From Corynebacterium gallinarum (GTDB taxonomy: Bacteria > Actinomycetota > Actinomycetes > Mycobacteriales > Mycobacteriaceae): a DNA stretch of 64,000 nucleotides. The notes under the pieces were generated by a model. It ran no database searches and was not told the origin of the DNA. It saw only the letters and a list, made by a program, of their open reading frames with translations. Both the position numbers and the translations under genes were made by a program. Positions 7,981 to 20,353 of the stretch are shown piece by piece (the stretch's first letter is position 1; the number at the start of each line of letters is the position of its first letter). The stretch spans positions 124,001 through 188,000 of the forward strand of contig NZ_JACSPR010000006.1 of assembly GCF_014837045.1 (NCBI RefSeq), given 5' to 3'.

Positions 7981-8454
7981 GTGACCACCGTTGTGATCAT
8001 CCTGCATGTCCTCGCCGCCATCCTCTTCCTGGGACCGGTGACTGTGGCCACCTCGTCCTTCCACGTCCGCGCCGCGGAGGCCAACAACGGCGACACCGAA
8101 GCCGCCGGGGCCGCCAAGAACCTCTACAGGATCACCCAGAATTACGGCGTCTTCTCGCTCCTGGTCCCACTTCTGGGTGTCGCCGTGATGTTCACCGATG
8201 TCGGCTACTACTTTCAGCAGTACCAGTTCCACGCCGCGATCGTCCTGTCACTGCTTGCCTGGGCTGTACTGCTGTTTCTGATCTTCCCCCGACAGAAGAC
8301 CATGATGGGTGCACTCGGATTCCTGGAGCCTGATGAACTGGCCGCCAAGTCCTACCAGATCGCGGACTGGAACAAGGCCAAGAGCCAGCTGTCGATGTTC
8401 GGTGGTATCTGGGCTCTGCTCTGGGTGCTCACCGCCATCACCATGTTCCTTTAA
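7981..8454 (+). CDS. small four-helix membrane protein (DUF2269-like)
   Basis: A 157-residue protein with about four hydrophobic helices: VVIILHVLAAILFLGPVTVA, FSLLVPLLGVAVMF, AAIVLSLLAWAVLLFLIF and a C-terminal segment. The first helix carries a histidine in the ILHVLAAILFLG pattern found in DUF2269-type and related small membrane proteins. Function unknown. Start is GTG 7981, with GAAAGG 11 bases upstream. A strong terminator follows 30 bases after the stop. Confidence 0.65.
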   Translation: MTTVVIILHVLAAILFLGPVTVATSSFHVRAAEANNGDTEAAGAAKNLYRITQNYGVFSLLVPLLGVAVMFTDVGYYFQQYQFHAAIVLSLLAWAVLLFLIFPRQKTMMGALGFLEPDELAAKSYQIADWNKAKSQLSMFGGIWALLWVLTAITMFL

Positions 8455-8483
8455 CCCCGGGCACCGTCCCCTGGATAGGCCAC

Positions 8484-8518
8484 ACCGCGGCACCGGTTCT
8501 TCCGGTGTCGCGGTTTTT
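8484..8518 (+). terminator. Rho-independent terminator
   Basis: A 12-bp GC-rich stem (CCGCGGCACCGG with CCGGTGTCGCGG, one mismatch, loop TTCTT) is followed by TTTTTCG. It ends transcription of the small membrane protein gene and probably of the run that begins at putP. Confidence 0.9.
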
Positions 8519-8694
8519 CGTGCGGTACGCCGGCTGTTGCGGAAGCTGAGGAGCCGACAGCCGTGAACGACATGGTTGGTTTATGGTGGAAAAAGCCAAC
8601 ATAGGGGTGTTTCCGGCACAGAACAACGATGTCGTTCACCAGCCGTCTCGCACAGTCTGCCGCAGGACCCTCGCAGGTCCCCCGACACAACAAC

Positions 8695-8732
8695 AGCGAC
8701 CCTCCTCCCACCAGGGAGAAGGGTCGCTTGTT
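8695..8732 (-). terminator. hairpin terminator downstream of deaD
   Basis: AGCGACCC pairs with GGGTCGCT around a 17-base loop that can pair further internally. It sits 20 bases past the deaD stop. The T-tract is weak on both strands, so it may act bidirectionally between the two convergent genes. Confidence 0.6.
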
Positions 8733-8754
8733 ATTGGTCAGTCAACCGGGGAAA

Positions 8755-10950
8755 CTAGTCCCTCCAGCCGCCTCGGCCACCGCGATCATCACGGTCACGG
8801 CCGCCGCGGAATCCACCGCGGTCGCCGCCACGTGAGCCGCCTTCACGGCCGCCGCGGAAACCTCCGCGGTCGCCGCCACGTGAGCCGCCTTCACGGCCGC
8901 CGCGGAATCCACCGCGGTCGCCGCCACGGTCATCGCGCTCGAAGCGACGTGGTGGGCGTCCACCGGAGTCACGTTCGATGTTGATGAGCTGGCCGGAGAT
9001 GCGGGTGTCGCGGAGGTTGTCCAGGACACTCTGTGGCAGATCCTTGGGCAGTTCGACCAGGGTGTGGTCGGCTGCAATGGTGATGCGTCCGAAGTCCTTG
9101 GAGTTCAGACCACCCTCGTTGGCCAGGGCGCCGACGATGGCACCTGGGCGGACGTGCTGACGCTTGCCCACCGCGATGCGGTAGGTGGCCAGGTTTGCGT
9201 CGTCACGGTCGAAGCGGGACGGACGGTCACCCCGGTCGCGGCCACGGCCACCACGGTCGTCGAAGTCGCGGTCACGACGTCGATCGCCGCGGTCTCCGCG
9301 GTCACGGTCCCGGCCACGGTCGCGGTCAGCGGCCTGCTCGGTCAGGAAGAAGTCGTTGCCGGCCTGAGCCTGGGTGGCCAGTGCGGCGGCGACGTCCTCG
9401 AGGGGTACGTCGTTCTTGTCGGCGTACTCCTTGATCAGAGTGCGGAAGAGAGCGACCTGGGGGTTCTCGAGTGCCTCGGTGATGGAGTCGGCGAACTTGA
9501 CCTTGCGGTACTCGTTGACCTCGTCCACGGTCGGCAGTTCCATCTCCACCAGTGGGGCGTTGGTGGCCCGCTCGATGGAGCGGAGCATACGACGCTCACG
9601 TGGGGTGACGAACAGGATGGCCTCGCCGGTACGTCCTGCACGGCCGGTGCGGCCAATGCGGTGGACGTAGGACTCGGTGTCGTTCGGGATGTCGTAGTTG
9701 AGCACATGGGAGATGCGCTCAACGTCGAGACCACGGGCGGCAACGTCGGTGGCAACCAGGATGTCCAGACGGCCATCCTTGAGCTGGTCGACGGTGCGCT
9801 CACGCTGAGCCTGGGCGATGTCACCGTTGATGGCCGCTGCGGAGAAACCACGTGCACGCAGCTTCTCTGCGACCTCTTCGGTTTCGTGCTTGGTGCGCAC
9901 GAACAGGATCATTGCCTCGAACTCGGTGACCTCGAGGATGCGGGTCAGTGCGTCCATCTTGTTGCGGTGTGCAACAGACAGGAAGCGCTGGGTGATGTTG
10001 GTGGCGGTGCGAGTCTCGGACTTGACCGAGATCTCCTGCGGGTTGTTCAGGTACTGCTTGCTCAGGCGACGGATGCCGTTGGGCATGGTCGCGGAGAACA
10101 GTGCGACCTGCTTGTCAGTGGGTGTGTCGGCGAGGATGCGCTCGACATCCTCCTGGAAGCCCATGTTGAGCATCTCATCGGCCTCATCGAGCACGAGGAA
10201 GCGCAGACCGGAGATATCCAGTGAGCCCTTCTCCAGGTGATCGATGATGCGGCCCGGGGTACCGACGACGACGTGGGCACCACGACGCAGGCCGGACAGC
10301 TGGATGCCGTAGGCCTGTCCACCGTAGATCGGCAGGACGTTGATGCCACCGAGGTGATCGGCGAAGGACTGGAAGGAATCAGCGACCTGGAGCGCCAGCT
10401 CACGGGTCGGGGCAAGCACGAGAGCCTGGGGGCTGCGCACGGACTTGTCGATGCGGGACAGAACCGGCAGCGCGAAGGCTGCGGTCTTACCGGTACCGGT
10501 CTGTGCGAGGCCGACCACATCGTGTCCGTCCATGAGGACGGGGATGGTCTGTGCCTGGATGGGGGAAGGAGTTTCGAAACCAACCTTGCGCACAGCGTCA
10601 AGAACCTGCTGTGGCAGTCCGAGTGCATCGAAGCCGGTGGAGGCTTCCGTAGAGGATGACTCGTTTGAAGACTGGGTTACGTCTTCCGAGGAGTCCTCAT
10701 TCACATTCTCATTGATTACATTGCTCGCGCTGTCCGCTGCTTCGGCGGAGTCGGCGTCCTCAGAAATTTCCGCAACCCTGGTGATCTCTTCGCTACCCTC
10801 AGGCACAGTGGTGCCTTCAACAGTGTTGGTGGGGGTCTCGAGAGCGAAGTCAGCTACTGCTGAGTCACCCTGCGGGGTTTCCTGAGATTCCGACGAAATG
10901 ACGTTATCCGGCTGTTCTACGTCGCCGTTGACGTTATCGGTATTTCTCAT
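8755..10950 (-). CDS. deaD: DEAD-box RNA helicase DeaD/CsdA
   Basis: A 731-residue protein. The first 110 residues are acidic and low-complexity. The RecA-like core follows with AQTGTGKTAAF (motif I), PTRELA (Ia), TPGR, LDEADEMLNMGF (DEAD), SATMP (III), RGLDVERISHVLNYD and HRIGRTGRAGR (VI). After it comes a DbpA/CsdA-type RNA-binding domain (about residues 575-660) and a glycine-arginine-rich tail. DeaD unwinds short RNA duplexes in ribosome assembly and mRNA turnover, mainly in the cold. It stands alone, flanked by a terminator and a divergent intergenic region. Confidence 0.93.
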   Translation of the reverse strand: MRNTDNVNGDVEQPDNVISSESQETPQGDSAVADFALETPTNTVEGTTVPEGSEEITRVAEISEDADSAEAADSASNVINENVNEDSSEDVTQSSNESSSTEASTGFDALGLPQQVLDAVRKVGFETPSPIQAQTIPVLMDGHDVVGLAQTGTGKTAAFALPVLSRIDKSVRSPQALVLAPTRELALQVADSFQSFADHLGGINVLPIYGGQAYGIQLSGLRRGAHVVVGTPGRIIDHLEKGSLDISGLRFLVLDEADEMLNMGFQEDVERILADTPTDKQVALFSATMPNGIRRLSKQYLNNPQEISVKSETRTATNITQRFLSVAHRNKMDALTRILEVTEFEAMILFVRTKHETEEVAEKLRARGFSAAAINGDIAQAQRERTVDQLKDGRLDILVATDVAARGLDVERISHVLNYDIPNDTESYVHRIGRTGRAGRTGEAILFVTPRERRMLRSIERATNAPLVEMELPTVDEVNEYRKVKFADSITEALENPQVALFRTLIKEYADKNDVPLEDVAAALATQAQAGNDFFLTEQAADRDRGRDRDRGDRGDRRRDRDFDDRGGRGRDRGDRPSRFDRDDANLATYRIAVGKRQHVRPGAIVGALANEGGLNSKDFGRITIAADHTLVELPKDLPQSVLDNLRDTRISGQLINIERDSGGRPPRRFERDDRGGDRGGFRGGREGGSRGGDRGGFRGGREGGSRGGDRGGFRGGRDRDDRGGRGGWRD
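8797..8927. repeat. 48-bp tandem repeat in the deaD 3' end
   Basis: Two complete and one partial 48-bp copies start at 8797, 8845 and 8893. In the deaD frame each codes for the 16-residue unit GGDRGGFRGGREGGSR. The repeat lies wholly inside the gene and keeps the frame, so copy-number change would alter the length of the RGG tail without breaking the protein. Confidence 0.85.
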
Positions 10951-13885: not shown

Positions 13886-14776
13886 TCAGCCCCGCAGGAA
13901 CTCCATGATCGCCGGCCAGTCACGCCTCGCCTGACGCATGCCCGCATCAAAGGTGGCCCTGAGTCTGCCCAGGTTGATCTCGGTGTTCCGGATGGCCATA
14001 TCCTCGGAGAAGAACACATAGGCCTGGCCGGCCTTCTCCAGGTCGAGGATGCGTTGCTTGGTCTCGTTGTACCGTGTGGGCCGAGCCAGGGTTGCCTGCG
14101 CCACCGCCGGATAACGCCTGAGTACCGCGGTGAGCAGACCGGGGCGGGTGAACTCCGAACGCCGGTAGTCCCGTGGCCTGGAGGACAGCACCAGGAAACG
14201 CTCAAACCCGGCGCCCAGGGCCGGCTGCAGCATCAACCCACCGGTCTCGCCGATGGCGCCGTCGACATAGGGTGCGCCGTCGATGATGGGGATCGGCATG
14301 AACCCGGGCATGGTGGAGGAGGCCCGCACCCTCTTCATCAGTTGCGAGAGGTCGGTGGCTGATTCCCTCCCCCAGAACACTGTCTCCCCGGTGTCGGCCC
14401 GCACTGCGGAGATCTGAAACGGCGTGGGATTGTTGGTGAAGGTCTCGAAGTCATAGGGGTACTGCTGGTCGGCACCCGGCGCGATCTCATACATATGCTC
14501 GGCGTGGAAATATCCCTTGCCACGCAGAAACGGGCGGATCCCCGAATGCCTGCGGTCGGCGGCGAAATCCACGAAACTCGCCTTCGTGCGGAAGCGGTCC
14601 CCGGACAGGTAGTTGACCGTGTGTGAGGATCCGGCGGAGACTCCCCCAACCCAACCGACATGGATGTCGTGGGCGATGAGCTGATCCACCACGGCGGCCG
14701 TATAGGCGTTGCGGGTGCCACCGCCCTCGATGATCAGGGCGACATCCGGGAAGTACTGGGGTGAGGATAAAGACAT
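13886..14776 (-). CDS. patatin-like phospholipase
   Basis: A 296-residue serine lipase of the RssA/YjjU type. IIEGGGTRNAYTAAV is the oxyanion loop, GGVSAGSSH the GxSxG nucleophile motif, and DGAIGET carries the catalytic Asp of the Ser-Asp dyad. There is no signal peptide or membrane span, so it is probably cytoplasmic; the lipid substrate is unknown. The ATG at 14776 has no Shine-Dalgarno sequence but is preceded, seven bases away, by TAAACT, a good corynebacterial -10 box, so the mRNA is probably leaderless. A longer in-frame start at 14905 would add a tail with no resemblance to the family. Confidence 0.82.
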   Translation of the reverse strand: MSLSSPQYFPDVALIIEGGGTRNAYTAAVVDQLIAHDIHVGWVGGVSAGSSHTVNYLSGDRFRTKASFVDFAADRRHSGIRPFLRGKGYFHAEHMYEIAPGADQQYPYDFETFTNNPTPFQISAVRADTGETVFWGRESATDLSQLMKRVRASSTMPGFMPIPIIDGAPYVDGAIGETGGLMLQPALGAGFERFLVLSSRPRDYRRSEFTRPGLLTAVLRRYPAVAQATLARPTRYNETKQRILDLEKAGQAYVFFSEDMAIRNTEINLGRLRATFDAGMRQARRDWPAIMEFLRG

Positions 14777-15016
14777 GGGGATGAGTTTACGCGTGCGACC
14801 CGAGTCGCTGGCCACCCCAACCTGCACATCCCCCACGGAGAAACTGTGCAGTGCGCCACAAAACTGCACGTAGACCGCATTATATCCAACCCTGAAAGAG
14901 GTCAACCGGGAACTCCCCGGGGTATCTTACGACCTATGAGGAGATGACGGTTTCATCAATCCATTACCCAAGGAGACCGTCGCACCCGATCACCTATTGA
15001 GGGGAAGTGTTTTCAC

Positions 15017-15229
15017 GTGGATGTCGTTGACATCGCACGGTGGCAGTTCGGTATCACCACCGTCTATCACTTCATTTTCGTCCCGTTGACCATCGGCCTG
15101 GCACCGCTGGTGGCGCTGATGCAGACTTTCTGGCAGGACACCACCAATGCAGATCAACGACCCGTGAACTGGCAGTTCACCACCACGGACGCACGGATCA
15201 AGCTCCGCCACCTGTACCCAGAACATTAG
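15017..15229 (+). pseudogene. cydA: cydA remnant (cytochrome bd oxidase subunit I), truncated and fused to a foreign tail
   Basis: The first 42 or so residues, MDVVDIARWQFGITTVYHF through ALMQTFWQ, are the N-terminus of CydA, including the histidine of helix I region. A full CydA has about 510 residues. After QTFWQ the sequence changes to an unrelated 29-residue end (NWQFTTTDARIKLRHLYPEH), which resembles the C-terminus of IS630-type transposases from memory. The GTG start and its GAGGGGAAG ribosome-binding site are intact, so the promoter may still work. No cydB, cydC or cydD follows; a restriction-modification pair does. The product cannot be a functional oxidase subunit. Confidence 0.85.
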
Positions 15230-15259
15230 TCACGACACTCTACTAGTAACATTCTGGGA

Positions 15260-16048
15260 ATGAATCCCGCAAAACCAACTAAAGCTCCTAAGAAAAGTAC
15301 TCTCTCAGCGGGAGACGTCAAACGGTTTCGATCGCTTCTAGAGAAGTTTCTCAATTCTGCAGACCCACAAGGTCGTGTAATAGGTGCTGCAACTTGGGGT
15401 GTTTACGCTTTTTATGATTTCGATGGAGAGCCAATTTATGTCGGGCAAACCAAAGAGTCGCTTCGCGGCCGCGTTCGACGCCACTTAACAAATCAACGTA
15501 CAGATGCAGTCGCTATGAGGGTCCTTGACGTATTAGAAGTCGCCGAAGTAGAAGTTTGGCCCCTATGGGATCTGCAAGTTCTGGGAAGAATCGACAAACC
15601 GACAGCTCAAAAGCGTCTCGATGAATATGAATATAGTGCCTATCTCAAGGCAATCGATAAGTCTAAATTTCGTGCAATCTTAAATGAAAAAATTCCCCCC
15701 AGGAATCCACGAGTGGACCTTCCCGAGTCCTTTCGAGGTTCTGTGATCAGTGTGGAGGATTATGAACATTTGAGTCATCCCGATATTCGCATTGCAAGAA
15801 GAGCAGAGACCATTTCGCGTTTGGCTGACGTCGTCCGAGAGCGGGGCGAAGTGTCAACCGGCTTGCGTCGCGTATTGGTAATTCAGGCAATCCGACTCAC
15901 CTTCTTATCTGCGGAGAGACTTGCTTTTAGTGAAGGAAGACCCCAGCCGTCACCCTTGAGCATCGATTCCATGAGTTTAGTTGGTTCCGTCCTTTCTGAA
16001 AAAGATTCGGAATCCTACGAGCTTGAGCAGGAAGAATGCGAAGACTAG
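15260..16048 (+). CDS. GIY-YIG endonuclease, probable type II restriction enzyme (Eco29kI-like)
   Basis: A 262-residue protein. The GIY-YIG nuclease core is clear at residues 43-80: WGVYAFYDF (GIY), PIYVGQTKESLRGRVRRH (YIG plus the catalytic arginine and histidine region). Eco29kI/Cfr42I-type restriction enzymes have this fold and a similar size. It is followed 89 bases later by a DNA cytosine methyltransferase, so the two are almost certainly a restriction-modification system. The stretch is clearly richer in A+T than its neighbours and begins 30 bases after the cydA break, both signs of horizontal entry. The recognition sequence cannot be read from the sequence. Confidence 0.78.
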   Translation: MNPAKPTKAPKKSTLSAGDVKRFRSLLEKFLNSADPQGRVIGAATWGVYAFYDFDGEPIYVGQTKESLRGRVRRHLTNQRTDAVAMRVLDVLEVAEVEVWPLWDLQVLGRIDKPTAQKRLDEYEYSAYLKAIDKSKFRAILNEKIPPRNPRVDLPESFRGSVISVEDYEHLSHPDIRIARRAETISRLADVVRERGEVSTGLRRVLVIQAIRLTFLSAERLAFSEGRPQPSPLSIDSMSLVGSVLSEKDSESYELEQEECED

Positions 16049-16137
16049 TATGACTCTTGAAAAGAACATCTGTTTGGATAAACATACGCGGATAATGTTC
16101 TCACTTGTCGCCATCTGTTAGATCGAGGTCACTTTAT

Positions 16138-17295
16138 ATGAACCAATTCATTCCACAATCAAAGGAACCTTTGAAAGCGCTGGAATTCTTTGCGGGAATT
16201 GGTTTAGCCCGAGCAGGCATGGGAACCTTTGGCATTTCAACCATCTGGGCTAATGATTATGACCCTTCCAAACAACTCATGTATTCGAAACAATGGGATG
16301 GTTCGGAATATCGATTGGCCGATATACATGAGATTCGGGGCGAGTCAGTACCTACAGCCGATATCGCATGGAGTTCGTCTCCATGCACAGATCTCTCACT
16401 AGCGGGTAACCGCGTAGGACTTCGAGGCGGCCGCGAATCCTCTGCATTCTTTGGTTTCACTAGAGTCCTTCGCGAAATGGGTGAACGTAAACCTAAAGTG
16501 GTGGTATTGGAAAATGTTCTAGGACTTGCCTCATCGAATAAGGGAGCAGATTTACGGGCAGCAGCTCTTGAATTCAACGAATTAGGGTATTCCGTCGACT
16601 GCATAGTCCTAGACACTCTTCATTTTCTCCCCCAGTCGCGCCCGCGGTTGTTTATGGTTGGAGCATTGGAACCCCGGGGGGGCGGGTCATTAGACGAAAG
16701 CCTTCGACCTAAGAAAATTTCAAGCATTCATAGTGATCCCGCAATCGATACTTTCCTAAGTCCTCTACCGCAATTGCCTGATTTAGTCACTGAAGGACTA
16801 ACCTCCGGAATTATTGAGAGATTGGATCCTACTGATAAGCGGTGGTGGCATCAGGAACGAGTTGAGAATTTCGTTCATTCCATGTCAGATGTTCAACGCC
16901 AGCGTTTGAGAAATTACATTCAGTCACCTCTAATTGTTGCTCGCACCGCTTACCGACGTACCCGTAATGGAATTCCCGTATGGGAAATGCGGGCGGAAGA
17001 CGTCTCGGGATGTCTACGCACTGCTCGAGGAGGATCGTCCAAACAAGCGGTCGTTATTATGGGTCAAGGAAGCGTCAACATTCGGTGGATGACCGGCCTT
17101 GAATATGCTCGTTTAATGGGGGCTGGATGGTTTAACCTCGACGGATTACGTGAGAGCCAGATCCATTACGGTTTCGGTGATGCGGTTTCAGTCCCGGCAG
17201 TATCATGGATTACAGCAAATATGGTACTTCCCGTTTTAGGAACACCAACATCTTCCTCTCCGGCGCTCAAACCGTCCTTACTTAGCAATGGGTAA
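16138..17295 (+). CDS. DNA (cytosine-5) methyltransferase
   Basis: A 385-residue C5-cytosine methyltransferase with all main motifs in order: LEFFAGIGLARAGM (I, AdoMet binding), SSSPCTDLSLAG (IV, catalytic Pro-Cys), VVVLENVLG (VI, ENV), QSRPRLFMVG (VIII, QxRxR) and GFGDAVSVPAVSWI (X). The region between VIII and X, about residues 190-320, is the target-recognition domain. It protects host DNA from the GIY-YIG nuclease encoded just upstream. ATG 16138 is chosen because motif I follows closely and GAGG lies 10 bases upstream. Base composition is low in G+C, as for the nuclease. Confidence 0.9.
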   Translation: MNQFIPQSKEPLKALEFFAGIGLARAGMGTFGISTIWANDYDPSKQLMYSKQWDGSEYRLADIHEIRGESVPTADIAWSSSPCTDLSLAGNRVGLRGGRESSAFFGFTRVLREMGERKPKVVVLENVLGLASSNKGADLRAAALEFNELGYSVDCIVLDTLHFLPQSRPRLFMVGALEPRGGGSLDESLRPKKISSIHSDPAIDTFLSPLPQLPDLVTEGLTSGIIERLDPTDKRWWHQERVENFVHSMSDVQRQRLRNYIQSPLIVARTAYRRTRNGIPVWEMRAEDVSGCLRTARGGSSKQAVVIMGQGSVNIRWMTGLEYARLMGAGWFNLDGLRESQIHYGFGDAVSVPAVSWITANMVLPVLGTPTSSSPALKPSLLSNG

Positions 17296-17349
17296 TTCTG
17301 TGGCGTGAAGATCACAGAGATTTAAATAATTGAGACCTTAACGCCGAAA

Positions 17350-17375
17350 GGCGGAGCAGCCCGCGCTGCTCCGCC
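17350..17375 (-). terminator. terminator of the alkaline phosphatase gene
   Basis: A perfect 11-bp stem, GGCGGAGCAGC with GCTGCTCCGCC around CCGC, followed on the minus strand by TTTCGG. It lies 38 bases after the phosphatase stop and separates it from the convergent methyltransferase gene. Confidence 0.85.
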
Positions 17376-17412
17376 TGTGGAAAAACCCTTCAGAGGTTAG
17401 TGAACGAGGATA

Positions 17413-18837
17413 TTAATCCTTGGTCCACCACTTGCCGAAGGTGAGGTTGGCGATGGTGACGTTGTCGATGAAACCACCACGGACCGGGTCGGCGCCGACG
17501 ATGGAGGCCTTGATGTCCTCAGAGCCTGCGCCCTTGAAGAAGAACGGAACCACCTGGTTGGTGTGGTTGCCGGAGTACCAGCCGTGCGCCGGGACCTCGC
17601 CAACCTCACCGGTCAGTGCCTTCCAGTTGGGCAGCTCATCCTGGCCGGAGAGGTAACCGGTCTCGTGGTCGGCGGTGACGATCAGCAGGGTTTCATCCCA
17701 GGAGGAGTTCTGCTCCACCCATGCGACAACAGCGTCGACGGCGTTGTTGAAGTCCTGCTGCTCCTCGATGTTGCGGGAGATGTCGTTGGCGTGGCCGGTC
17801 CAGTCGATGGCGCCGCCCTCGATCATGAGGTGGAAGCCATCCTCGTCCTGGCCCAGGACGTTGAGTGCGCCTTCGGACATGGTGGCGAGATCGACAACGT
17901 CGTTCTGCGGAACGGAGTAGGGGGCGGTGGAGAAGCCGTCGCGACCCTGCTGCAGGGTGGAGGCAACCTGGGCCAGACCGAAGTACTGGGCATCATCCTC
18001 GACGTCACCGTTGGCCAGAGCCTCAAAGTCAGCGTTGTCCTCCACGTAGGTGAAGTCGGTGTCACCGTTGGAGACTGCGTTGAAGTCAGTCTCGGAGATG
18101 TACTGGTAGCGGGGGGTGTCGCGGAGGTTGTTGGAATCGTCGTAAAGCGGGTGGCCGGCACCCATGATGACATCCAGGTCGGAGTTGAGCATCTCGGTGG
18201 CGATACCCTGGTAGTCATTGCGGTTTTCGTTGTGGGCTGCCCAGGCAGCCGGGGTGGCGTGGCTGAACGGCACGGAGGAGACAACGCCGGCGGCCTTGTC
18301 CACGGCGAGGGCGCGCTCAGAGGTGTTCTCGACGGCGTTGCCCTCGTGGTCCAGACCGATGGCACCGTTGGTGGTCTTCGCGCCGGTGGCCATGGCGGTG
18401 CCGGCCGCTGCGGAGTCGGTGATAGAACCGGTGTTAACGTAGTTGTGGTCATTCCACGCCTGGACCGGATCATAAGAACCACCGTGCTGGTAGGTGGTCA
18501 TGCCCACCAGGTCGAAGTCCTCGTAGACCTGGACTGCTTCACCTGGGAGCTCCTCGAGGGCCTCGGCGTCGGCTTCGCCCTCGACCTGATACTTGGTCTG
18601 GCCAGTCTCATACAGGTTGGTGGCAGCAACATGGTTGAAGCCCATGCCGTCACCGACCATGTAGATGATGTTCTTGGGCTCGGAGGGGCCCTCCGGGGCG
18701 GTGGAGCCGTAGTTGAACAGGTCGGAGGAACCGAAGCTGCTCTGGGCGCCGACGCCCGGTGCCATGAGACCGGCGAGGACGACGGCGGACGCGGAGACAG
18801 ACGCTACAGTGCGCAGTGCGAGGCGGGAAAGTGCCAC
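17413..18837 (-). CDS. secreted alkaline phosphatase
   Basis: A 474-residue exported enzyme. The first 32 residues form a signal peptide (hydrophobic core VASVSASAVVLAGLMAPG, cleavage probably after VGAQ). IIYMVGDGMG holds the first metal-binding Asp; TGSITDSAAAGTAMATG is the PhoA active-site signature with the nucleophilic serine; LMIEGGAIDWTGHAND and VTADHETG give the remaining zinc ligands. It releases phosphate from organic esters outside the cell. GTG 18837 has AAGGAT 9 bases upstream. Genes of this kind are usually induced by phosphate starvation through PhoRS; I could not identify a convincing PhoR site. Confidence 0.92.
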   Translation of the reverse strand: MALSRLALRTVASVSASAVVLAGLMAPGVGAQSSFGSSDLFNYGSTAPEGPSEPKNIIYMVGDGMGFNHVAATNLYETGQTKYQVEGEADAEALEELPGEAVQVYEDFDLVGMTTYQHGGSYDPVQAWNDHNYVNTGSITDSAAAGTAMATGAKTTNGAIGLDHEGNAVENTSERALAVDKAAGVVSSVPFSHATPAAWAAHNENRNDYQGIATEMLNSDLDVIMGAGHPLYDDSNNLRDTPRYQYISETDFNAVSNGDTDFTYVEDNADFEALANGDVEDDAQYFGLAQVASTLQQGRDGFSTAPYSVPQNDVVDLATMSEGALNVLGQDEDGFHLMIEGGAIDWTGHANDISRNIEEQQDFNNAVDAVVAWVEQNSSWDETLLIVTADHETGYLSGQDELPNWKALTGEVGEVPAHGWYSGNHTNQVVPFFFKGAGSEDIKASIVGADPVRGGFIDNVTIANLTFGKWWTKD

Positions 18838-19150: not shown

Positions 19151-20353
19151 ATGGAACCACGGGCACCGCAGTGGGAACTGAACGAACGGTTCCTCAGAAT
19201 TACTGATCTCCTCGGCGATCACCGCAGCATCGTGGAACGGGAGGCCGCGGTCTATGCGCTGTCCGCCCTCGCGGATGACTGCGCGGAGCTCAATGACGGT
19301 GATCTCGACGAGTCATATCGATTACAGCAGGCCTGCCTCAATCTGATCTGCTCCCAACTCAGGGACCCCATCACCGGCAGTACACCAGCGTCAGAGCTGT
19401 TGGTGTTCAAACATCGCGTCCAGAACCTGATCGTGGACCGATTCCGCCCCAGATTCCTCGGGGGCATCGCCGACTGGTCCCACCTCTGGCTGGATCTCAC
19501 CTACTGCCATTTACATGATTTCGGATTATCACTGGCCACACTGTCCAAACCGGTGAACTTCGCCCACGCCCATTTCCACGGCAACACCTCCTTCAACGAT
19601 TCACAGTTCCACGCACCTGTCCTGTTCACCCACGCCCACTTCACCGGGTTAACCTCACTCCAGCGGGTACAGTTCCACCACACCGCCAGATTCACCGAGG
19701 CGGAATTCACGGCCCTGGCGGTATTCAATGAATCTCAGTTCGATCGTGATGCCTTCTTCGACGAGGTCTGTTTCACCGGTTCATCCTGGTTCCGCGCCGT
19801 GACCTTTGATGCCGATGCCGATTTCACCTCAGCCCAGTTCTGGGATACGGCACATTTCCAGGATTCTGACTTCGCCTCCTATGCCACCTTCTCGCAGGCG
19901 CAGTTCACCTCCACTGCGCGCATCGAGAAGTGCACCTTCCGCGACGGTGTCGATCTCTGCGAGGTATTCTTCGGCGGTCCGATCTCCTTCAACAAATCAG
20001 AATTCATCGATTCCGTGTGTTTCGATGATGCCTTCTTCACCACCTCTCCCCTGTTCCGATCCGCGATGTTCAACGAGGTCCAGTTCCACCGCACCCACTT
20101 CCACTGCCCCGTGATGTTCGGTCCGTTCCAGTTCAGCACCACCACCGACTTCTCCGACGCGGTGTTCTGCAGCGGGTTCGGACTCCACGCAGACCAAGGC
20201 AGCAACATGGAACTGACCCTCGATGGCACCTGCTTCAGCTATGACGAGGACACGGTAATAAAGGAACTGGACAATGCGATCCCGAGCGGACTGCTGAAAA
20301 CCGCGATGTTTGAGTACAGCTGCGATTCACCCCTACAGATCCGCGGTCGGTGA
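19151..20353 (+). CDS. pentapeptide-repeat-like protein
   Basis: A 400-residue protein. From about residue 130 onward it consists of five-residue repeats with a central phenylalanine, such as FNESQF, FDRDAF, FFDEVCF, FTSAQF and FQDSDF, which fold into a right-handed quadrilateral beta-helix. The first 110 residues are helical and lack the repeat. There is no signal peptide. Some pentapeptide proteins mimic DNA and protect gyrase, but here the function is unknown. GGAGG 8 bases before ATG supports the start. Confidence 0.8.
   Translation: MEPRAPQWELNERFLRITDLLGDHRSIVEREAAVYALSALADDCAELNDGDLDESYRLQQACLNLICSQLRDPITGSTPASELLVFKHRVQNLIVDRFRPRFLGGIADWSHLWLDLTYCHLHDFGLSLATLSKPVNFAHAHFHGNTSFNDSQFHAPVLFTHAHFTGLTSLQRVQFHHTARFTEAEFTALAVFNESQFDRDAFFDEVCFTGSSWFRAVTFDADADFTSAQFWDTAHFQDSDFASYATFSQAQFTSTARIEKCTFRDGVDLCEVFFGGPISFNKSEFIDSVCFDDAFFTTSPLFRSAMFNEVQFHRTHFHCPVMFGPFQFSTTTDFSDAVFCSGFGLHADQGSNMELTLDGTCFSYDEDTVIKELDNAIPSGLLKTAMFEYSCDSPLQIRGR

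What the first reader, a model, noticed from the sequence alone, without database searches (positions are those of the whole stretch)
15017..17295. Cytochrome bd locus destroyed and replaced by a restriction-modification pair
cydA is intact from its ribosome-binding site to about codon 42, then continues into a short foreign tail that resembles a transposase end. Thirty bases later starts an AT-rich GIY-YIG nuclease/C5-methyltransferase pair, and the next gene is a phosphatase; cydB, cydC and cydD are absent. In the C. glutamicum group cydABDC is expected here. The strain would then lack the bd oxidase unless another copy exists.
Basis: partly seen in the sequence, partly recalled or inferred. 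Interest (0 to 1): 0.6.

Follow-up and report, generated by a model that had tools for sequence, protein, structure and literature searches.

The report
IS-linked deletion of cytochrome bd operon
A Corynebacterium related to C. efficiens has lost its cytochrome bd oxidase genes through one deletion joining the start of cydA to the tail of a jumping gene, which leaves a neighbouring DNA-restriction gene pair sitting behind the old cyd promoter.

Summary
Window 15017-15137 is the first ~40 codons of cydA. It runs in frame into the last 117 bp of an IS630-family element, identical to the end of a complete copy elsewhere in the genome. The join lies within an 8-bp word shared by cydA and the transposase gene. 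No other CydA, CydB or CydC was found in the assembly. The closest relative by its patatin gene, G097, has patatin-cydABDC-[26 kb]-phoA; the window has patatin-cydA'-IS'-R-M-phoA. R-M did not itself replace cyd: it sits where G097 and G100 carry other defence genes. Most likely an IS630 landed just upstream of R, then one deletion of about 6.7 kb or more removed cyd and most of the IS. The cyd promoter region with a conserved ECF-type motif survives and faces R-M. The pair resembles an ordinary type II module (GIY-YIG nuclease, C5 methyltransferase), with unusual R-before-M order. CydA matches occur in only 88 of 242 genomes of the genus. G100, which lacks cyd at this site, has it on a plasmid.

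The parts
14908..14933 (+). ECF-sigma-like promoter motif GGGAAC-N16-CGAC of the former cyd operon
   Evidence: Conserved 100-141 nt upstream of cydA in 7 of 7 clade genomes with a chromosomal cyd operon; 35 of 20000 random 300-nt windows hold it
15017..15137 (+). 5' remnant of cydA (codons 1 to about 40)
   Evidence: PF01654 1-41; 93% DNA identity to G097
15130..15137 (+). 8-bp microhomology CTGGCAGG at the cydA/IS630 junction
   Evidence: Three-way comparison cydA(G097)/window/IS
15017..15229 (+). chimeric 70-aa ORF, CydA N-terminus fused in frame to transposase C-terminus
15130..15246 (+). 3' remnant of an IS630-family element; terminal inverted repeat at 15228-15244
   Evidence: 117/117 identity to the complete copy on C29
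15260..16048 (+). R: GIY-YIG nuclease, 262 aa, complete reading frame
   Evidence: PF01541; catalytic-type residues invariant in 40 aligned sequences chosen from 67; AlphaFold2 pLDDT 87, best fold matches UvrC GIY-YIG domain
16138..17295 (+). M: DNA cytosine-5 methyltransferase (ATG 16138 with GAGG upstream; the mechanical ORF starts at TTG 16105)
   Evidence: PF00145, TIGR00675, PADLOC MTase_II E 2e-154
17340..18837 (-). phoA alkaline phosphatase with its 3' region; homology to G097 resumes at 17340
13886..14905 (-). patatin-like phospholipase, divergent from cydA; left flank shared with G097

Best explanation
This is a scar of a single IS630-adjacent deletion. (1) Inferred: the ancestor had patatin-cydABDC followed by a variable interval ending at phoA, as in G097. 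(2) Inferred: a GIY-YIG/C5 methyltransferase module was acquired in that interval, next to phoA. (3) Shown from the remnant, order inferred: an IS630 element inserted with its right end about 15 bp before the R start codon. (4) Shown from the junction: recombination at an 8-bp word removed everything between cydA codon ~40 and the last ~33 codons of the transposase frame, which took the rest of cydA, cydBDC and the first 1,153 bp of the IS. (5) Consequence, inferred: no bd oxidase, so aerobic respiration must use the remaining haem-copper oxidase (one COX1 gene). The intact cyd promoter region now faces a 70-aa chimeric ORF, then R and M. R-M is inferred to act as an ordinary type II restriction system.
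For: cydA homology and the IS tail meet in CTGGCAGG. The complete IS has matching 17-bp inverted repeats, and joining its flanks gives one continuous 226-codon open stretch, which supports the assembly of that copy. Gene order patatin-cydABDC-...-phoA-pentapeptide-yczE-FMO in G097 equals the window order minus cyd. Other copies of cydA, cydB and cydC were not found. R and M differ from the window in GC; a C5 methyltransferase lies in the same locus as the nuclease in 66 of 66 related loci. No terminator-like site was found between 14850 and 15260 on the + strand.
Against: The assembly is a draft of 33 contigs, and the 117-bp identical tail is a place where short reads can be misjoined; flanking synteny argues against it but reads were not available. 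G097 has no DNA match to this IS or to R-M anywhere in its cydC-phoA interval, so steps 2 and 3 rest on the remnant alone and their order is not shown. That R-M is transcribed from the cyd promoter is not shown: R lacks a well-placed Shine-Dalgarno, and M may have its own promoter. CydD was not searched genome-wide.
Confidence: 0.85

Rival explanations
1. Assembly artefact: the contig was wrongly joined at the IS630 tail, and cyd is intact in the cell.
For: Draft assembly; the 117-bp tail has a second identical copy.
Against: The cydA-IS junction sits in only 8 bp of shared sequence, in general too short to mislead an assembler. The C29 copy is supported by its empty site. Both sides of the window junction match G097 gene order. 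No cydA remainder, cydB or cydC was found on any contig.
Confidence: 0.05
2. The R-M module itself inserted into cydA as a mobile element and displaced the rest of the operon.
For: The pair differs in GC; relatives of R lie in many genera and in 12 plasmid records.
Against: R-M does not touch cydA; 109 bp of IS after the shared word lie between them. Only one IS end is present in the window, so there is no composite transposon. The other end of the module abuts phoA, as different defence genes do in G097, and one lies in the same interval in G100.
Confidence: 0.06
3. cyd was lost first by an unrelated event, and IS630 plus R-M were placed next to the stub later.
For: The order of events cannot be dated from one genome; many genomes of the genus lack CydA.
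Against: The junction joins cydA directly to an internal point of the transposase gene; a later IS insertion would leave a left IS end, and none is present.
Confidence: 0.04

Closest known systems
Type II R-M systems with GIY-YIG endonucleases (Eco29kI, Cfr42I, Hpy188I)
   Same: GIY-YIG nuclease beside a DNA methyltransferase. Invariant Y49, Y60, R71-x3-H75, E124 and N142 match in kind the Eco29kI active site Y49, Y76, R104-x3-H108, E142, N154 (residue correspondence made by eye).
   Different: No sequence match to solved Eco29kI or Hpy188I chains. Best fold match is the UvrC GIY-YIG domain (Z 7.4); Eco29kI only Z 3.6. Recognition site unknown.
IS630-family insertion sequences
   Same: HTH_32 and DDE_3 frames, 17-bp terminal inverted repeats, TA target; several plasmid relatives are annotated as IS630 family transposases.
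   Different: In the window only the last 117 bp remain.
Cytochrome bd oxidase operon cydABDC of G097 (by recall of its chromosome length, C. efficiens YS-314)
   Same: Promoter region and first ~40 codons, 93% DNA identity.
   Different: All the rest is deleted.
Plasmid-borne cyd genes of Corynebacterium faecale (NZ_CP047205.1) and C. halotolerans (NC_020303.1)
   Same: Shows cyd as a relocatable function; G100 (its contig C2 matches the C. faecale plasmid at 100% over 4,398 bp and has the same length) also lacks cyd at this chromosomal site.
   Different: Not found in the window genome.

Membership tests
Functional cytochrome bd oxidase | Complete CydA | tested here: not met
   Only model positions 1-41 of 418 in the genome
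Functional cytochrome bd oxidase | CydB | tested here: not met
   No PF02322 match over the cut-off; best 20 bits against 35.6
Functional cytochrome bd oxidase | CydC exporter subunit | tested here: not met
   G097 CydC as query finds 60 ABC-type matches, the near full-length ones at 30% and 29% identity
Functional cytochrome bd oxidase | CydD exporter subunit | not tested
   Not searched genome-wide; tblastn only in the window and in fetched loci
IS630 family | DDE_3 transposase with HTH, terminal inverted repeats, TA target | tested here: met
   C29 copy: PF13565, PF13358, TIRs 17/17, TA target and restored frame. The window remnant was tested only by identity and its one repeat
Type II restriction-modification system | Nuclease gene next to a DNA methyltransferase gene | tested here: met
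   Adjacent on one strand in the window; in related loci adjacent on one strand in 57 of 66, within the locus in 66 of 66
Type II restriction-modification system | Site-specific cleavage blocked by methylation | not testable with these tools
   Needs enzyme assay or methylome
GIY-YIG restriction endonucleases (Eco29kI type) | GIY-YIG domain with catalytic Tyr, Tyr, Arg, His, Glu, Asn | tested here: met
   PF01541; Y49, Y60, R71, H75, E124, N142 invariant in 40 of 67 sequences chosen for alignment, and in 65 or 66 of all 67; reference residues from PMC1952068 passages
GIY-YIG restriction endonucleases (Eco29kI type) | Sequence or fold kinship with Eco29kI beyond the catalytic domain | tested here: inconclusive
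   No sequence hit; VIA-align Z 3.6 over 115 residues
C5 cytosine methyltransferase | PF00145/TIGR00675 over cut-off | tested here: met
   129.9 bits and 138.7 bits, both over their cut-offs
SigC-dependent promoter | Conserved ECF motif at known SigC targets | tested here: inconclusive
   Motif upstream of cydA in 7 of 7 clade genomes and of a probable ctaB; ctaA only a one-mismatch version read by eye, missed by the script's pattern. A printed SigC consensus was not found

The most novel reading that the evidence does not exclude
Promoter capture: the deletion placed a restriction-modification operon, nuclease first, under the respiratory-stress promoter of the lost cyd operon. In C. glutamicum that operon is activated by SigC and HrrA and repressed by OxyR. 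Restriction in this strain would then rise when the aa3 oxidase fails, or with haem or peroxide, coupling DNA defence to the state of the respiratory chain.
Probability: 0.2. Interest if true: 0.55.

Novelty: new member of a known kind. Interest (0 to 1): 0.34.

Why it matters
It is a clean, base-level example of how an insertion sequence beside a variable, defence-carrying interval removes a respiratory operon. With the plasmid-borne cyd genes in the neighbouring species C. faecale, it suggests that bd oxidase is becoming an accessory, relocatable trait in this subclade. The strain would be a natural bd-null for respiration work. The surviving promoter region in front of R-M makes a rewired-restriction hypothesis directly testable.

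Tried and rejected
Simple IS insertion into cydA: rejected, no left IS end in the window. Composite transposon carrying R-M: rejected, only one terminal repeat in 64 kb. ISAzo13-type origin of the tail, guessed from recall: PF07592 gave nothing in the genome, but its control rang nowhere, so that call proves nothing; the IS630 assignment comes. Eco29kI kinship by sequence: none found. Phage origin of the pair: one partial match (69% of the query, 55% identity) in an unnamed phage record and two short hits annotated excinuclease; 7 viral contigs carry relatives and were not followed. Gene-tree congruence of R and M: trees of 62 rows (window plus 61 of 66 loci, those with R of 200 aa or more); both window proteins fall with actinobacterial sequences, but the positions differ (M beside L063/L083 on a long branch, R at the base of the group; the R tree is a quick tree), so I make no claim of strict co-inheritance. 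The COX1 control rang in 8 of 14 genomes and not in C. glutamicum, which by recall has ctaD, so that search can miss genes; it found one gene here. Scripts with errors: the R/M order labels were wrong for overlapping genes and were recomputed; one search searched promoters without orienting the loci and was redone; one printed cydA translation was out of frame and was not used.

Literature: searches for a printed SigC consensus and passages of PMC6338062 gave none; that GGGAAC-N16/17-CGAC is the SigC motif is recalled, its conservation is. A search for IS630 with microhomology, deletion and R-M showed no similar case in its 8-paper listing. Search for C. efficiens and bd: listing only. PMC4081073: passages on GIY-YIG only.

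Full report
What is there. Window 15017-15229 encodes a 70-residue chimera. Its first ~40 residues are CydA (PF01654 model positions 1-41, E 5e-13). Against G097, the closest of the 242 genomes of the genus by the patatin protein (88%), the DNA is 93% identical over 14884-15142, including the upstream region. The stretch 15130-15246 is identical, base for base, to the end of a complete element on contig C29 of the same genome. That element (L136 about 8453-9721) has two overlapping frames with HTH_32 and DDE_3 domains and 17-bp inverted repeats identical at both ends. Joining its flanks leaves one TA and a continuous open stretch of 226 codons. Several plasmid relatives are annotated as IS630 family transposases. 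It is an IS630-family element, and the window keeps only its right end.

The junction. cydA of G097 reads CTTCTGGCAGGTCACC, the IS reads TCGCTGGCAGGACACC, and the window reads TTTCTGGCAGGACACC. The switch is inside CTGGCAGG at 15130-15137, starting at base 114 of cydA. By the geometry of G097 and of the full IS, 5,515 bp from the breakpoint to the end of cydC and 1,153 bp of IS are missing, about 6.7 kb, plus whatever lay between cydC and the IS. The left IS repeat is absent from the window, which excludes a plain insertion.

Other copies. The genome (33 contigs, 99.99% complete) has no other CydA, no CydB over the cut-off, and no CydC orthologue among 60 ABC-type matches (best near full-length ones 30% and 29% identical to the G097 protein). 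CydD was not searched genome-wide. One COX1 gene was found (its control rang in 8 of 14 genomes). In the genus, 88 of 242 genomes have a CydA match, the window's stub included, so absence is common. Of the 11 genomes compared, 8 have a near full-length CydA match, 1 is the window's stub and 2 have none (G232, a 210-contig draft, and G168).

Surroundings. In G097 the order is hutG-patatin-cydABDC-[about 26 kb]-phoA-pentapeptide-yczE-FMO. In the window it is hutG-patatin-cydA'-IS'-R-M-phoA-pentapeptide-yczE-FMO. Homology to G097 resumes at 17340, about 45 bp after the M stop codon. In G097 the stretch beside phoA encodes Druantia-type proteins (DruF, DruL and part of DruE), with a frame between L and E that looks like a transposase (by eye). 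In G100 the patatin-phoA interval holds a protein matching a type IV restriction enzyme (E 2e-293). So 3 of 3 genomes in which I examined this interval carry different defence-type genes there. R-M is best seen as the local occupant of a defence hotspot, not as the agent that destroyed cyd. In six other clade genomes (G079, G090, G094, G117, G167, G241) cydA lies on the 3' side of patatin (coordinates).

G100 and the plasmid cyd. G100 has no cyd in the fetched 19.9 kb at this site, but its contig C2 (103,707 bp) carries cydA, and the fetched 4,398 bp are 100% identical to a Corynebacterium faecale plasmid, NZ_CP047205.1, of the same length. C. halotolerans has a 93%-identical plasmid copy. L015, from another genome of the genus (G018), is 98.8% identical. 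The identity of G097 with C. efficiens YS-314 is my recall of its chromosome length, not a tool result.

The R-M pair. R (15260-16048) has 65 relatives among the loci returned by a pattern-based GTDB contig scan, which is a lower bound, but only 2 of 242 genomes of the genus have it, the window's included. A C5 methyltransferase lies in the same locus in 66 of 66 (those 65 plus G168). In 56 of 66 it is directly upstream on the same strand; 1 of 66 (L090) has R first and adjacent, as in the window; 7 have it upstream but more than 250 bp away, and 2 on the opposite strand. In an alignment of 40 of the 67 sequences Y49, Y60, R71, H75, E124 and N142 are invariant; in all 67 they hold in 65 or 66. 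They correspond by eye to the active-site residues of Eco29kI (Y49, Y76, R104, H108, E142, N154; PMC1952068, abstract and passages). The AlphaFold2 model (mean pLDDT 87) matches UvrC GIY-YIG domains best (VIA Z 7.4, 93 residues, 2.5 A) and Eco29kI weakly (Z 3.6); Foldseek gave no hit at E 0.001, and Z under 8 is not strong by the tool's own note. M carries PF00145 and the dcm model over cut-off. PADLOC has a close methyltransferase model but no match for R.

Expression. The region upstream of cydA keeps GGGAAC-N16-CGAC at 14908. The same motif, with N17, lies 100-141 nt before cydA in 7 of the 8 loci L126-L133; the exception is the plasmid-borne L126. Of 20 other cydA loci (L002-L021), 1 has it. 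The stricter form occurs in 35 of 20000 random 300-nt windows. Genome-wide it occurs 34 times against 18 for the reversed control, so most genome-wide matches may be chance; one lies upstream of a UbiA-family gene that is probably ctaB, and ctaA has a one-mismatch version read by eye. In C. glutamicum the cyd operon is activated by SigC and HrrA and repressed by OxyR (PMC7337898, abstract and passages). PMC6027265 (passages) cites work in which SigC overexpression raised cydABCD, ctaA and ctaB. No terminator-like site lies between this motif and R. R-M may therefore be read from the cyd promoter. Against this, R has no well-placed Shine-Dalgarno (GGGA touches its ATG), because the IS end lies about 15 bp upstream; M has GAGG at normal spacing (sequence). 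Whether R is expressed is open.

Verdict. The reading 'replaced by R-M' becomes 'removed by an IS630-adjacent microhomology deletion next to a defence hotspot'. Each element is of a known kind; the interest lies in the base-level record of the event, the plasmid-borne cyd of a neighbouring species, and the testable promoter capture.

Noticed in passing
L126/L169 (G100:C2), NZ_CP047205.1: cydA, cydB and an ABC transporter gene lie on a 104-kb Corynebacterium faecale plasmid, with a 93%-identical copy on a C. halotolerans plasmid, beside a VKOR-thioredoxin-like cassette; six other Corynebacterium plasmids match only in that cassette.
   Followed up: partly
L138 5977-12558 and L116 12716-15853: The interval beside phoA carries Druantia-type genes in G097, apparently broken by a transposase frame, and a type IV restriction enzyme in G100: a possible defence hotspot.
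   Followed up: partly
L136 8453-9721: The complete IS630 on C29 has its two frames overlapping at a run of A7, as in elements with programmed frameshifting, and lies near a frame that looks like an integrase and one that looks like a primase (by eye).
   Followed up: no
G161, G170, G116, G068: Other genomes of the genus show only partial CydA matches, possible independent remnants of bd loss (contig ends not checked).
   Followed up: no
G097, G167, G117 cyd loci: The cyd operon lies on opposite sides of the patatin gene in different relatives, so it has moved or been inverted within the clade.
   Followed up: no
window 19151-20353: A pentapeptide-repeat protein (PF13576) next to phoA, found in G097 at 85% identity and not in the fetched 19.9 kb of G100.
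   Followed up: no
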